This document shows positions 1-46,183 of a DNA stretch of 64,000 bases, in pieces (position 1 is the stretch's first letter; each line of letters starts with the position of its first letter). The notes under the pieces are model-generated. The model did no database searches. It was given only the letters and a program-made list of their open reading frames with translations, and was not told where the DNA came from. The position numbers and the translations under genes were made by a program. The DNA lies in assembly GCF_015751965.1 (NCBI RefSeq), contig NZ_JADOVH010000001.1, forward strand, positions 930,001 through 994,000, read 5' to 3'. The DNA is from Frigoribacterium sp. CG_9.8 (GTDB lineage Bacteria; Actinomycetota; Actinomycetes; Actinomycetales; Microbacteriaceae).

Positions 1-769
1 GCGGCTGCCGCAGCCGATCGAGACGGAGGCGCCAGGCTGACAGTCGGCCGGGTAATTCCGCCGGCGCCGGTCCATCGATCCACCCAGTGACTATCCGGAT
101 GCCGTGGAGTGCACTGATCGCCCAGATCTCGCAGCCGTCAAGCTCGGCTGGCACGATCGATTCGGAGTGGGTCTGCACTCCACGTGCCGCCGCAAGGGCA
201 AACACCGAACGCGCTGTGACGCTATCCACCCGGTCGAGCTCGGGGGAGGGTGCGCAGAGCACGTCTCCCCGCCACCAGAACAGTGAGCTGTATGCACCTT
301 CGACCACGAATCCCTCCGGGGAGAGGATCACCGCTTCACCGGCACCATTCGCCTGTGCATCGGTGCGGATGCGCAGCAGAGCAGCCATGTCGGGTCCCTT
401 GGTGCGCGGGGTGGTCCGCGGGTCCGGACCGTGGTGGCTCGCGAGTGTCACGGATCGGGTCAGCTCGGGTGCGCTGCGCAAGCGGAATACCGGAAGTACA
501 GCATCGGTCTGCCGCTGGAGCTCGACCCGCGGAAACCAATCCCCGGTGCGGGGAATCGCCGCGATCGATGCATGCCAGAACCGGTCGAGGTCGTCGATGA
601 GTCCGTTTGCGGCGAGGAAAAAACGCTGCCGATGCAGCTCGATGGCAAGCACCGATCCCTCGGTGACCAGCCAGGAATCTGCCGCGATGATCGTCGAGTC
701 GATCAGGCCACCCTCGTCATGGTGGTGCAGCCCGCTCGTGTGCCAACGGTAGACGGTCGACTCACTCAT
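1..769 (-). CDS. pabC: Aminodeoxychorismate lyase-like class IV aminotransferase (3' end cut by window edge)
   Basis: An open minus-strand frame runs from an ATG at 769 off the left edge without a stop, so the C-terminus is missing. About 256 residues are visible. The stretch RTKGPDMAALLRIR followed by GEAVILSPEGFVVEGAYSSLFWW matches the core of fold-type IV PLP enzymes of the PabC/IlvE family, which release pyruvate from aminodeoxychorismate to give p-aminobenzoate. The divergent neighbour is pabB, the preceding step, which supports the folate assignment. The start is supported by a TACCCT -10-like box exactly six bases upstream, implying a leaderless mRNA. Another class IV aminotransferase role cannot be excluded without the full sequence. 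Confidence 0.8.
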   Translation of the reverse strand, partial: MSESTVYRWHTSGLHHHDEGGLIDSTIIAADSWLVTEGSVLAIELHRQRFFLAANGLIDDLDRFWHASIAAIPRTGDWFPRVELQRQTDAVLPVFRLRSAPELTRSVTLASHHGPDPRTTPRTKGPDMAALLRIRTDAQANGAGEAVILSPEGFVVEGAYSSLFWWRGDVLCAPSPELDRVDSVTARSVFALAAARGVQTHSESIVPAELDGCEIWAISALHGIRIVTGWIDGPAPAELPGRLSAWRLRLDRLRQP

Positions 770-40006: not shown

Positions 40007-41221
40007 TCAACTCGATTTCGGTTGCGTCAGCTTCTGGCGCCACGCCGAGAAGCTTTTGACCGAACCGGCATGAGGCTCGGCCAGCCATGGCCACGGATGC
40101 ATTTGCGCGGCGGTTGTGGCGTACTTCGCAAAGCTCGGCACCGGAGCCCAGGTGATCGCGGCGTCGAGACCCGGGGTGATCTTCCGGGGGTCTCCGAGAT
40201 GCACGATCACTTCGCGCCGCTCGGCTAGGTCTTGGAGCGTCTCCACGAAGAACACCAGTCTTTTGCTCGAGAGCTTGAGCTTCTGCAGCGCAGGTTCATC
40301 GAAGACGAAGATGACCGGGAGCTGCGGATGAGCCACGAGCGCCGGATCATCATCGCCGAGGGATTCGACTGTGAGCACCACTGAGCGGGGTGTGGATCGA
40401 TCAACCACCGTGGCCGGACCTCGCGTTCTCGCCAGATCGTCATCCCGCATGAGCCGTGGATCAGGTTCGGCAACCGGACGCGGATCGCTATCCTCGGGAA
40501 AATTTTGGATCGGGCATTTGCAATTCAGCGGGCATGCCATACACAGTTTGGGTGCTCGTTTCTCCACCTGCCACCGCGCAAAACCATAGGGTTTGCCGGA
40601 ACCTGCGCCGACGGTCCACTGCCACCCGAGAAGGTTGGCAGCGCGCGAGCCGTCGAGCAGGTGCTGATGGAAATACTCCTGTCCGGCGACCCATCCTGCT
40701 CCGGATCGCACGGTGTACTGCGAGGCGAGCCACATGCGAGTCTGATTCACCAGCCAACCGTCCGTTTCCAAAGACGAGATTGCCCAGTTCACACAGGCCA
40801 TCTCGCGCGGCCACGCCTCCGGCGTGAAATCTCCGGACCATGGCACCTCGAACCGCAGATTGTCGTGTAGGGACATTCCCACCCGTGCATATAAATGCCG
40901 GCTGTACTCCTGCCACAGCAATTCGTCACGAAATTTTGAGACATCCGCCGACGGACCGACCGCTGCCTTCCAGACCTCCCGCAGTGGAAGCAACCCGTGT
41001 CGGATGTAAGGCGATAGCCGGGAAGCCCCGCGAGCAGATTGCGGAAGCACCTGATTGCGCTTCGCCGCGTACCCGGTCACATCGAACGCGTTGAGTGCAG
41101 CATTCGCCGCCATTTGCCCACCGCGGATATCCGGACTCGCGCTGATCCGATCGCTCACGAGATGCGACAGGTGACGTTCGACAACGGCTTCGGGAGCAAC
41201 GCCGTCCAGAGAGATGATCAT
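40007..41221 (-). CDS. Photolyase/cryptochrome-family protein with circularly permuted domain order
   Basis: The 404-residue protein contains the FAD-binding helical domain of DNA photolyases at its N-terminus: IRGGQMAANAALNAF, then GASRLSPYIRHGLLPLREV (about 62-80), FRDELLWQEYSRHLYAR, WAISSLETDGWLVNQTRMWLAS and GWQWTVGAGSGKPYGF. The alpha/beta antenna-type domain, normally at the N-terminus, appears after it (about 280-404): LTVESLGDDDPAL, LPVIFVFDEP, SSKRLVFFVETLQDLAER, VIVHLGDP and a final SFSAWRQKL. Between the two lies CMACPLNCKCPIQ (about 224-236), four cysteines that could bind a metal or Fe-S cluster. Repair or photoreceptor activity is inferred only from family. Transcribed alone, divergent from the GT2 gene. 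Confidence 0.82.
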   Translation of the reverse strand: MIISLDGVAPEAVVERHLSHLVSDRISASPDIRGGQMAANAALNAFDVTGYAAKRNQVLPQSARGASRLSPYIRHGLLPLREVWKAAVGPSADVSKFRDELLWQEYSRHLYARVGMSLHDNLRFEVPWSGDFTPEAWPREMACVNWAISSLETDGWLVNQTRMWLASQYTVRSGAGWVAGQEYFHQHLLDGSRAANLLGWQWTVGAGSGKPYGFARWQVEKRAPKLCMACPLNCKCPIQNFPEDSDPRPVAEPDPRLMRDDDLARTRGPATVVDRSTPRSVVLTVESLGDDDPALVAHPQLPVIFVFDEPALQKLKLSSKRLVFFVETLQDLAERREVIVHLGDPRKITPGLDAAITWAPVPSFAKYATTAAQMHPWPWLAEPHAGSVKSFSAWRQKLTQPKSS

Positions 41222-43279: not shown

Positions 43280-46183
43280 TCAGTGGGGAGCGGAAGGAGC
43301 AAGGAAATCCCCGAAGGGCACGACTGGCTCCGGATCGGCAGAAGGCGCAGAGAACAGGTGGCCTTGCCCGAAGCGGCACCCCATTTCGAGCAAAAGCTCT
43401 AATTGTGCCGGTGTTTCTATGCCCTCTGCGACAACCTGCAGCTTTAACAAGTCGGCCATCTGGATGATGCCTTCCACGATCGCTCGATCGCGCGCGGAGA
43501 ATTCGATATCGCGCACGAAGGTGCTGTCAATCTTCACCAGATCGACATCAAAGGTCCGCAGGTGGGAGATCGACGAGTAGCCTGTGCCGAAATCATCGAT
43601 AGCGAGGCGCACACCGAGGTCTCGCAGCTCATTAAATGTCCTGGCGGCAGAGTCTGCCGCTTCGATCATCGCACTCTCAGTGAGCTCCAACCAGAGTCGG
43701 TCCGGGGACAGGCCGGAACCACTGAGCGCTCGCGTGACCACCGTGAAAAAGTCGTCTCGCACGAACTGCAGTCCAGACACGTTAACGCTGACAGCTATCC
43801 CGCTGTCCAACGCGGTGGTGGCTCGGCACGCCTGGTCGAGTACCGCGCGCCCGATTTGTTTTATCAAGCCCACCTCTTCGGCAATCGCGATGAAGTCACC
43901 CGGCAACACCAGCCCGTGCTCGGGCCGGCGCCACCGAGCGAGAGCTTCGGTAGCCACGACCTTTCGTTTGCGCAGATCCACTACGGGTTGGTACCAGGTC
44001 TCGATCTGACCCCGGTCGACTGCACTGCGCAGGGCGATCTCGGTATCCAGTTTTCGGGCGTGTCGGTCGCGCAGATCGTCATCGAAAACTTCGTAACGAG
44101 CTCGACCGCGGTCCTTCGCCAGGTACATCGCCTGGTCTGCGTCGCGCAATATGGTTTCGGGTTCGTCGTTGCCGATGCTGAAGGCGATCCCGATGCTGGC
44201 GTCGACGAATGCAACGTACTCATTGATCCGGATTGGTAGGGCGATCGACTTCTGGAGGGCATCCGCGAGTCGGGTGATGTCCCCACTGTTCGCGATATCG
44301 GGGCAGATGACAACGAATTCGTCTCCACCGATACGAGCCACCGTGTCTGACGTCCGAACCCCGTTGCGGAGCCTCGTCGCGACTTCGGTGAGGACTGCGT
44401 CGCCGGAGTGGTGCCCGACGCTGTCATTGACTACCTTGAACCGATCCAGATCGATGAAGAGCACTCCAACTCCCCGACGGTTACGCGTCGCTTGGAGGAG
44501 CGCCTGCGCCAGTCTGTCCATCAACAGCAGCCGGTTGGGCAGGTTCGTAAGCGGATCGTGAAAGGCGAGATGCTCAACCCGGGCCTCGGCCAGCCGCCGT
44601 TCCGTGACCTCCTCCAGCTGGTAGAGCAGAGCTCCCACATGCGTGCCCTCTTTGATTTCGGCAATGCTCACCGTCACCCAGATCTCTTCGGAATCACTGC
44701 GGCGCACCTGTCGATCCGCATGAAGTGGGGAGCGTTCGTGTGGCCTTGTTGGCGCGTTATCCGCGCCGGCGGGCTGGAGCGGCATGAAAACCGACTCGAT
44801 CGACTCGTCCAACACCCCGGTCGACCGGCCGGTCAGATTCAACAGTCGCTGGTTGGCTTCGAGCACCAATCCGTCGAGCGACACTATGGCTGTGCCGAAA
44901 GGGGACCAGACAAAGGCCGCCTCAAACCGTGCCTGGGCGGCCGTCGCTGATGCTTCCGCGTCACGAAGTGCGGTGATATCCGTGACGCTCGCCACATGTC
45001 CGATCACGGCGCCTTCCTCCTTGATAGGCGTGGTGGCGACCTGTGCCCAGTGGATCTGCCCGTCTGGTGTGCGAAAACGCAGCGTACCTGCGTAAGCGGT
45101 GCCGCCGGCGACGATTTTTCCCCACCTGGCGCTCACCCGGCCCACATCGTCGGGGTGCAGCGCCGACATCCACCCGTCGTTCACGGACTCCTCCAGAGTC
45201 AGTCCGCTCACGCTGAGCCACTGGTCATTGGCAGTGAGCAGCCCTCCCGCACTATCCAGCTCCAGGATTCCCACCGGCGCAAGCCGCACGATCGCCTGGA
45301 GTGCGTCGGCCGACCCTGCCAGTTCCCGGGTTCGAACCGCGACCGTGGCCTCGAGCGCGCAGTTTGTCTCCGCCAGGCTGTTCAGCGCACCATCCCTCCG
45401 CCGGTCAAGTTCACGAAGCCTCCGGGCAGCTATCCAGGTGACGGTGCAGCCGAGGATAGTCGTGCCCCACACGAGCAGCGCAATGGCGAAAGCAGTGTCG
45501 AATCGATCCATACGCAGTGCCAACAGACTGAGCCAGCCGAGGGCGAACGGAACGACAATGAAGAACGGTATCGCCGGGCGGAGCAGTCTCCCTCCGCTGC
45601 CGGTATCCCGCGACAATACGACCAAACCGGTGCAGGGATACTGCAGCAGTGTCGCCCCGGACAGCACGCCGATTGCGACGGCCGTGAGCAGGGACATGCT
45701 GGTGTACCCGCCGACCGCGGACAGCGATGACGCCTCATAGGCGTAGCCGATAATCGCGATTTGACTGATGCAGAGGGTGACGACGGCGAGGGCGAGTGTC
45801 AGTGTGCTTCGGGCAAGATTACGGAGCAGCACTGAGCCGCCCAGCAGACAGAGGCAGAAGGCAGTCGATGGTGCCATGCGCGCACCACTTGCACTCAGCA
45901 TGATCCCCGGCAGTACGGTGTCCATGCCAAGCGACCGATTCAGAATATTCTCGGCAAGCGATAGGCCGCCGATGATCAGTACGAGCGCACCCAGCACTGT
46001 TGTTAGACGCCGACGGTGGAATGCGACCAGTGCAATCGAGAGAAGCACTATGGCCAGCGCCGTCGTCGGTTTCATCGCCACAAGCCTGGAGGTCAGCACT
46101 GTGCTTGCGGTGTACCACCCGAACAGAATCGCAAGTGCGGAGGCGCCGACCATGGCAGCCGCAACGCGCCCGACTAGCTGCAT
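43280..46183 (-). CDS. Membrane-bound PAS-GGDEF-EAL protein (c-di-GMP synthesis/degradation)
   Basis: The 967-residue protein has an N-terminal membrane sensor of about seven or eight helices (1-260), a short linker helix, two PAS domains (about 295-530), a GGDEF domain (RIGGDEFVV about residue 616) and an EAL domain (EALARW about 744). Both catalytic domains look intact. GGDEF carries an RxxD inhibitory site (RTSD) five residues upstream. EAL has ELTES, DDFGTGYSS, VKID and EGIET. It could act as synthase or phosphodiesterase depending on signals. It converges with the GT2 operon, a plausible c-di-GMP output. Confidence 0.93.
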   Translation of the reverse strand: MQLVGRVAAAMVGASALAILFGWYTASTVLTSRLVAMKPTTALAIVLLSIALVAFHRRRLTTVLGALVLIIGGLSLAENILNRSLGMDTVLPGIMLSASGARMAPSTAFCLCLLGGSVLLRNLARSTLTLALAVVTLCISQIAIIGYAYEASSLSAVGGYTSMSLLTAVAIGVLSGATLLQYPCTGLVVLSRDTGSGGRLLRPAIPFFIVVPFALGWLSLLALRMDRFDTAFAIALLVWGTTILGCTVTWIAARRLRELDRRRDGALNSLAETNCALEATVAVRTRELAGSADALQAIVRLAPVGILELDSAGGLLTANDQWLSVSGLTLEESVNDGWMSALHPDDVGRVSARWGKIVAGGTAYAGTLRFRTPDGQIHWAQVATTPIKEEGAVIGHVASVTDITALRDAEASATAAQARFEAAFVWSPFGTAIVSLDGLVLEANQRLLNLTGRSTGVLDESIESVFMPLQPAGADNAPTRPHERSPLHADRQVRRSDSEEIWVTVSIAEIKEGTHVGALLYQLEEVTERRLAEARVEHLAFHDPLTNLPNRLLLMDRLAQALLQATRNRRGVGVLFIDLDRFKVVNDSVGHHSGDAVLTEVATRLRNGVRTSDTVARIGGDEFVVICPDIANSGDITRLADALQKSIALPIRINEYVAFVDASIGIAFSIGNDEPETILRDADQAMYLAKDRGRARYEVFDDDLRDRHARKLDTEIALRSAVDRGQIETWYQPVVDLRKRKVVATEALARWRRPEHGLVLPGDFIAIAEEVGLIKQIGRAVLDQACRATTALDSGIAVSVNVSGLQFVRDDFFTVVTRALSGSGLSPDRLWLELTESAMIEAADSAARTFNELRDLGVRLAIDDFGTGYSSISHLRTFDVDLVKIDSTFVRDIEFSARDRAIVEGIIQMADLLKLQVVAEGIETPAQLELLLEMGCRFGQGHLFSAPSADPEPVVPFGDFLAPSAPH

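What the first reader, a model, noticed from the sequence alone, without database searches (positions are those of the whole stretch)
40007..41221. Photolyase-family protein with its two domains in swapped order (apparent circular permutation)
Seen in the sequence: the FAD-domain motifs (SRLSPYIRHG, FRDELLWQEYSRHLYAR, TRMWLAS) start within the first 80 residues, with no alpha/beta domain before them. Residues about 280-404 instead show antenna-domain features (ESLGDDDPAL, LPVIFVFDEP, RLVFFVETLQDLAER, VHLGDP). Established: canonical photolyases and cryptochromes have the alpha/beta domain first. Inference: the gene arose by circular permutation or duplication-deletion and forms a distinct branch. 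Four cysteines (CMACPLNCKC) at the domain junction could hold a metal or Fe-S cluster, making it unlike both classical CPD photolyases and known Fe-S photolyases.
Basis: partly seen in the sequence, partly recalled or inferred. Interest (0 to 1): 0.75.

Follow-up and report, generated by a model that had tools for sequence, protein, structure and literature searches.

The report
Photolyase with reversed domain order
The gene encodes a relative of DNA-repair photolyases whose two domains are in reverse order and which keeps four cysteines for a probable iron-sulfur cluster; this layout is already known from marine cyanobacteria, but here the active site looks built for the common pyrimidine-dimer lesion rather than the (6-4) lesion.

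Summary
The 404-aa minus-strand gene at 40007-41221 has a photolyase FAD domain at residues 1-250 and a photolyase alpha/beta (antenna) domain at about 279-400, the reverse of the usual order. Modelled alone, the C-terminal part matches the N-terminal domain of solved photolyases (49 of 50 listed rows, best Z 9.6). Profile comparison agrees (score 50.9 against at most 26.5 in 300 column shuffles). It is no assembly artefact: 78 of 80 listed loci cover residues 43-394.

The cysteine reading needs correction. C234 is private to this protein (1 of 57); C143, C227, C230 and C236 are invariant and fall on the iron-sulfur ligands of FeS-BCP photolyases.

The layout is in print: Haney et al. 2022 (PMC9426592; section 5 and part 1 of section 10 read) describe reverse-order Phr4/Phr5 and Phr6 with the four cysteines; NewPHL/SPL proteins are also called inverted (PMC13274461, passage).

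What I did not find in print is its spread as one gene in actinobacteria, and Glu100, Asn159 and Met163 where FeS-BCP (6-4) enzymes have Gln, His and Leu. I predict an Fe-S CPD photolyase, against the (6-4) role suggested for Phr4/5.

The parts
40007..41221 (-). Complete gene, 404 aa: FAD-first (reverse domain order) photolyase-family protein
40472..41221 (-). Residues 1-250: FAD/catalytic domain including the four conserved cysteines
   Evidence: Pfam PF03441 at 98-208; VIA-align model 5..250 to 201..472 of PhrB 5kcm_A, Z 16.5; whole-protein model pLDDT 94.4, pTM 0.93
40388..40471 (-). Residues 251-278: short variable linker (boundaries approximate, set by me)
   Evidence: low conservation in alignment A1
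40022..40387 (-). Residues about 279-400: alpha/beta (antenna-type) domain at the C-terminus
   Evidence: separate model of residues 270-404; 49 of 50 listed VIA rows are photolyases/cryptochromes; HHalign 93.8 and 95.0%
40793..40795 (-). Cys143, inferred Fe-S ligand
   Evidence: 57 of 57; C in 12 of 12 FeS-BCP rows, absent from canonical and NewPHL-type rows
40541..40543 (-). Cys227, inferred Fe-S ligand
   Evidence: 57 of 57
40532..40534 (-). Cys230, inferred Fe-S ligand
   Evidence: 57 of 57
40514..40516 (-). Cys236, inferred Fe-S ligand
   Evidence: 57 of 57
40913..40924 (-). E100-L-L-W103: lesion-contact Glu (Gln in FeS-BCP rows) and Trp (shared by both)
   Evidence: E 57 of 57, W 57 of 57
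40733..40747 (-). N159-Q-T-R-M163: CPD-type active-site Asn and Met (His366 and Leu370 in PhrB)
   Evidence: N 57 of 57, M 56 of 57; FeS-BCP rows H and L, 12 of 12

Best explanation
The gene encodes a flavoprotein photolyase that most likely repairs cyclobutane pyrimidine dimers (CPDs) with blue light. Shown by computation: the FAD domain comes first, the alpha/beta domain last, and four invariant cysteines sit where FeS-BCP enzymes bind [4Fe-4S]. Inferred: FAD binds in the N-terminal domain, is photoreduced through conserved tryptophans (W202, W177, perhaps W137) and splits the dimer held against E100, W103, N159 and M163; the cluster stabilises the catalytic domain; the C-terminal domain packs as in ordinary photolyases and may hold an antenna pigment. 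FO (8-HDF) is probably made, since the genome has a CofG domain in an 845-aa frame, but binding is untested. The reversal leaves the two domains' roles unchanged.
For: Folds of both domains; profile test with shuffles; invariant cysteines. Lesion-contact residues: E100 57/57, N159 57/57, M163 56/57, W103 57/57, against Q, H and L (and shared W) in 12/12 FeS-BCP rows. H366N abolished (6-4) repair in PhrB (passages of PMC4619345); CPD I enzymes have Asn there and a Glu where PhrB has Gln306 (PMC3204975 section 6). W202 and W177 57/57, W137 54/57. CofG domain in the genome, 453.9 bits against a cut-off of 213.35. In Synechococcus, loss of phr4/phr5 lowered UV-C survival and the pair protected E. 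coli from UV-C (PMC9426592 section 10 part 1), so a relative of this layout appears to work.
Against: No activity, cofactor or metal has been measured for an actinobacterial member that I know of. Haney et al. infer a (6-4) role from the cysteines and from the phenotype: phr4/phr5 mattered after UV-C and not after UV-B. PhrB L370M kept part of its (6-4) repair, so Met163 alone is not diagnostic, and PMC3204975 warned, before PhrB was assayed, that lesion type could not be clearly read from these residues. A66 and S192 stand where Thr240 and Asp382 are listed as FAD-binding (mapping mine). W137 aligns with a Gly in canonical rows, so its place in the Trp triad is a guess. The genome has four other photolyase-family genes. 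Foldseek alone gave E 0.038 at best for the C-terminal domain, 0 matches at E<=0.001.
Confidence: 0.6

Rival explanations
1. It is a (6-4) photolyase, as proposed for Synechococcus Phr4/Phr5 and Phr6.
For: Four cysteines aligned with those of FeS-BCP (6-4) enzymes; FAD-domain fold closest to 7ykn and 5kcm_A, both (6-4) enzymes, but tied with the CPD-type 1iqr (Z 16.7, 16.5, 15.9; 'CPD-type' recalled). Loss of phr4/phr5 mattered after UV-C and not UV-B, which the authors read as (6-4) repair.
Against: PhrB His366 is Asn in 57 of 57, Gln306 is Glu in 57 of 57, Leu370 is Met in 56 of 57; the genome already has a FeS-BCP gene of usual layout.
Confidence: 0.12
2. It is mainly a blue-light sensor (cryptochrome-like) and not a repair enzyme.
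For: A rhodopsin-type gene has its midpoint within 1.3 kb in 6 of 46 loci and at 3.8 kb in a seventh, all Cryobacterium (Pfam run on one). An uncharacterised photolyase-family gene, cpf2, follows the light-dark cycle in Rhodoluna (passages of PMC8591293); whether it is this family was not tested.
Against: The four lesion-contact positions tested keep repair-type residues in 56 or 57 of 57; no Pfam output domain in 57 of 57 apart from one weak LRR match.
Confidence: 0.15
3. It is a CPD photolyase specialised for single-stranded DNA, like NewPHL/SPL.
For: Same FAD-first order and Asn/Met active site as the two NewPHL-type rows; NewPHLs are described as repairing CPDs in single-stranded DNA (PMC13274461 passage).
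Against: The NewPHL-type rows lack the cysteines and their C-terminal part did not match (HHalign 0.3%; only two near-identical sequences).
Confidence: 0.13

Closest known systems
Phr4/Phr5 and Phr6 of picocyanobacteria (Haney et al. 2022, PMC9426592; section 5 and part 1 of section 10 read)
   Same: FAD domain first, photolyase domain second; four cysteines with gaps 85, 3 and 6 (RS9916 Phr4 C169, C254, C257, C263), here 84, 3 and 6.
   Different: Two adjacent genes in all marine Synechococcus examined there, one gene in two Cyanobium strains; one gene here. The authors suggest (6-4) repair; residues here point to CPD.
FeS-BCP / prokaryotic (6-4) photolyases (PhrB, CryB)
   Same: Four aligned cysteines, the KPY...C..C...CP stretch, fold of both domains.
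   Different: Usual domain order; His366, Gln306, Leu370; classical Trp triad missing. Reported cysteine gaps are 86-89, then 2 between, then 12-15 between; here 84, 2 between and 5 between.
NewPHL/SPL (Phr7-like), two copies in this genome
   Same: FAD-first order, Asn/Met active site.
   Different: No Fe-S cysteines; C-terminal part not detectably similar here (two sequences only).
Class I/III CPD photolyases
   Same: Glu, Asn and Met lesion-contact residues, both domains, two of the Trp positions.
   Different: Opposite domain order, no Fe-S cysteines.
Deinococcus 'FAD-binding domain-containing protein' (plasmid loci L136-L138)
   Same: FAD-first, four cysteines, CPD-type residues in 3 of 3; C-terminal domain matches at 98.0%.
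   Different: 29-31% identity; one residue more between the last two cysteines; not shown to be one clade with this family.

Membership tests
Reverse-domain-order Fe-S photolyases (Phr4/5, Phr6) | FAD domain N-terminal, alpha/beta domain C-terminal | tested here: met
Reverse-domain-order Fe-S photolyases (Phr4/5, Phr6) | Four Fe-S cysteines | tested here: met
   57 of 57 each; residues only, no metal measured
Reverse-domain-order Fe-S photolyases (Phr4/5, Phr6) | Groups with Phr4/Phr6 in an FAD-domain tree | not tested
   no cyanobacterial member was in hand
Reverse-domain-order Fe-S photolyases (Phr4/5, Phr6) | UV protection in cells | not testable with these tools
   reported for phr4/phr5
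FeS-BCP / prokaryotic (6-4) photolyase | Four cysteines for [4Fe-4S] | tested here: met
   present and aligned; gaps 84 and 5-between lie outside the reported 86-89 and 12-15
FeS-BCP / prokaryotic (6-4) photolyase | Catalytic His (PhrB His366) | tested here: not met
   Asn in 57 of 57; His in 12 of 12 FeS-BCP rows
FeS-BCP / prokaryotic (6-4) photolyase | Alpha/beta domain (PF04244 type) at the N-terminus | tested here: not met
   FAD domain comes first; no PF04244 match up to E 1
NewPHL/SPL | FAD-first order | tested here: met
NewPHL/SPL | No Fe-S cysteines (as stated for Phr7) | tested here: not met
   four cysteines in 57 of 57
Class I/III CPD photolyase | Alpha/beta domain first | tested here: not met
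Class I/III CPD photolyase | CPD-contact residues Glu, Asn, Met | tested here: met
   57, 57 and 56 of 57; canonical rows 11 of 11 each, two of those rows being one protein
Class I/III CPD photolyase | Light-dependent CPD repair | not testable with these tools
   no assay

The most novel reading that the evidence does not exclude
A widespread actinobacterial class of Fe-S CPD photolyases in reverse domain order, showing that the Fe-S cluster does not imply (6-4) repair, and possibly a surviving intermediate between Fe-S (6-4) enzymes and Fe-S-free CPD enzymes, with the reversed order arising once for this group, the Deinococcus group and NewPHL.
Probability: 0.4. Interest if true: 0.62.

Novelty: new member of a known kind. 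Interest (0 to 1): 0.42.

Why it matters
The family gives a clean test of what the Fe-S cluster in photolyases is for: it seems to pair that cluster with a CPD-type active site, so cluster and lesion type can be separated. It extends a layout reported from cyanobacteria to many actinobacteria, where it is one intact gene and so easier to express than the phr4/phr5 pair. It also bears on how the two photolyase domains were first joined.

Tried and rejected
Joined-gene or assembly artefact: rejected. 78 of 80 listed loci cover residues 43-394, with invariant residues in both halves. The other two (L037, L038) begin at the edge of their contigs; L024 matched residues 2-97 only. The 80 are loci, not 80 independent genomes (two come from one MAG record set, SHVK01).

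C-terminal domain as an unrelated Rossmann fold: disfavoured. In Foldseek's list, 19 of 50 rows are photolyases or cryptochromes by my count, among universal stress proteins, malate dehydrogenases and others, best E 0.038. In the VIA list, a second look at Foldseek's top 1000 chains, 49 of 50 rows are photolyases or cryptochromes, but about half of these are entries of one protein, the M. mazei class II enzyme; the odd row is 7pua_Ff. HHalign against full-length canonical proteins fell to 72.6%, still on their residues 5-87. Against the FeS-BCP N-terminal domain it was uninformative, 0.1% with the single sequence that passed my trimming. NewPHL-type C-termini matched neither this domain (0.3%) nor the canonical one (0.2%).

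Virus or phage origin: no support. A viral-contig scan confirmed 0 of 31 candidates; 10 phage records matched, none over 80% of the query and all under 60% identity.

Single origin of FAD-first order: unresolved. The best tree does not join this group with Deinococcus and NewPHL rows, but holding them together is not rejected (p 0.289; with Deinococcus alone p 0.325). Long branches meet in the tree. Rows used: 19 of 57 of this family, 3 Deinococcus, 2 NewPHL-type, 9 canonical and 9 FeS-BCP. Dropped before: 2 of 20 FeS-BCP loci without the motif, then every second; 2 of 30 canonical loci without a good ORF, 18 of the 28 left that failed a start-motif filter, one duplicate and one fragment, with the own gene added.

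Conserved operon: none detected; the most frequent neighbour family was in 7 of 46 loci (46's 80 loci, ORFs of 100 aa or more).

Prior print: seven searches listed no paper that I could recognise as describing this actinobacterial family. I saw passages of PMC9178010, PMC8591293, PMC4619345, PMC12029717, PMC8965627, PMC13274461 and PMC9498864, section 6 of PMC3204975, and section 5 and part 1 of section 10 of PMC9426592. Only open-licence PMC papers are held. A notebook entry that says 10 of 13 PDB sequence hits is wrong; it is 9 of 13.

Full report
What is there. The minus-strand ORF 40007-41221 encodes 404 aa. Pfam finds FAD_binding_7 at residues 98-208 and nothing else; NCBIfam gives only matches far under their cut-offs, photolyase and cryptochrome models first. 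The best PDB sequence match aligns residues 32-209 with 205-398 of photolyase 1tez. The genome is a 2.85-Mb assembly, by inference a Microbacteriaceae member: the nearest named matches are Cryobacterium and MAGs labelled Frigoribacterium, 84%.

It is a real family. Of 299 genomes of the same family, 21 (own included, one a partial match) have a match at E<=1e-40; of 396 genomes of the phylum, 26 (own included) at E<=1e-60. In genome contigs, 253 of 288 candidate stretches encode a relative; of the 80 kept, at 54 to 84% identity, 78 cover residues 43-394. Titles include Cryobacterium, Aquiluna, Nanopelagicales, Acidimicrobiia, Phycicoccus, Patulibacter and Klenkia, with single MAGs labelled Binatia and Myxococcota. 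I aligned 57 rows: the window protein, 54 of those 80 and 2 (A1). All 57 match FAD_binding_7 and none is listed for PF00875.

Domain order. AlphaFold models the whole protein at pLDDT 94.4, pTM 0.93. VIA-align puts about residues 5-250 on the FAD domain of photolyases: 7ykn (Z 16.7, 2.9 A, 241 aligned), 5kcm_A (16.5), 1iqr (15.9), tied. Residues 270-404 modelled alone (pLDDT 83.5, pTM 0.75, poor after about residue 110 of the model) align to the N-terminal domain of CryB 3zxs_A (Z 9.6, 2.6 A, model 8-110 to chain 1-127), PhrB 4dja (9.2) and 1iqr (8.8); 49 of 50 listed rows are photolyases or cryptochromes, about half being one protein. Foldseek alone was weak: best E 0.038, 19 of 50 rows photolyases or cryptochromes. 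Profile against profile: the C-terminal domain against 28 canonical alpha/beta domains gives 93.8%, and 95.0% with score 50.9 in the shuffle run, where 300 column-shuffled copies reached at most 26.5 and 21.8%, and the reversed copy 0.3%. Against three Deinococcus C-termini 98.0%, Deinococcus C-termini against canonical 96.5%; against canonical FAD domains 0.4% and its own FAD domain 0.0%. Pfam finds PF00875 at 300-395 of the Deinococcus protein L136, behind its FAD domain, though under the cut-off (20 against 26.6 bits).

Iron-sulfur site. C143, C227, C230 and C236 are invariant, 57 of 57; C234 is in 1 of 57. They fall on the four cysteines of FeS-BCP rows (12 of 12), are present in Deinococcus (3 of 3), and are absent from the 11 canonical and 2 NewPHL-type rows. 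PhrB's ligands are Cys350, 438, 441 and 454 (PMC3204975 section 6). Haney et al. give C169, C254, C257 and C263 for Phr4: gaps 85, 3 and 6, against 84, 3 and 6 here. The cluster itself is inferred; no metal has been measured.

Lesion type. Where PhrB has Gln306 (a Glu in CPD enzymes) the family has Glu (57 of 57); where PhrB has His366, Asn (57 of 57); where it has Leu370, Met (56 of 57). Trp103 is 57 of 57 but is shared with FeS-BCP rows. FeS-BCP rows have Q, H and L in 12 of 12; canonical rows E, N and M in 11 of 11 (two rows are one protein); Deinococcus 3 of 3; NewPHL-type 2 of 2. H366N abolished (6-4) repair in PhrB, while L370M kept part of it (passages of PMC4619345). This is my ground for predicting CPD repair, against Haney et al., who infer (6-4) repair from the cysteines and from an effect after UV-C but not UV-B. 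I think their survival data can fit either lesion; they would decide neither way without lesion assays.

Photoreduction and antenna. W202 and W177 are invariant and W137 is 54 of 57; PhrB lacks the classical Trp triad. A CofG domain over its cut-off lies in an 845-aa frame of the genome, with a second weak match in the same frame, which I read as a bifunctional FO synthase; the CofH half was not searched. FO binding is untested.

Relatives and origin. The 19 sampled rows of this family are one side of a branch (99/95). One origin of FAD-first order together with Deinococcus and NewPHL rows is neither shown nor rejected (p 0.289). The own genome also holds a canonical photolyase, a FeS-BCP and two NewPHL-like genes 90% identical (so named by me from the description of Phr7 and the sequences).

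Compared with print. Haney et al. 2022 described this layout with the four cysteines, and NewPHLs are said to have inverted topology (PMC13274461 passage). In the Haney main text 'actinobacteria' and 'Deinococcus' do not occur. Hence a new member of a known kind, with a new functional prediction.

Noticed in passing
L031, L033-L036, L041 (midpoints within 1.3 kb), L030 (3.8 kb): A bacteriorhodopsin-type gene lies near the photolyase-family gene in these Cryobacterium loci, 7 of 46 examined (Pfam PF01036 run on L031's copy only). In the window's own genome the rhodopsin is elsewhere, G000:C5:89715-90392.
   Followed up: partly
L191 (G000:C7:87894-89111) and L192 (G000:C1:245085-246293): Two NewPHL/SPL-like genes, 90% identical, in the window's genome; none in the other 97 genomes of the class sample at E<=1e-50.
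   Followed up: partly
L139:940-2538 (Halorubrum plasmid NZ_CP034693.1): A photolyase split into two ORFs in the usual order, alpha/beta (940-1329) then FAD (1396-2538).
   Followed up: no
PDB 7pub_Ff and 7pua_Ff: Chain Ff of Trypanosoma mitoribosome assembly intermediates matches the FAD-domain part and the alpha/beta part in fold.
   Followed up: no
window 43280-46183: A large PAS-GGDEF-EAL protein next but one to the gene.
   Followed up: no
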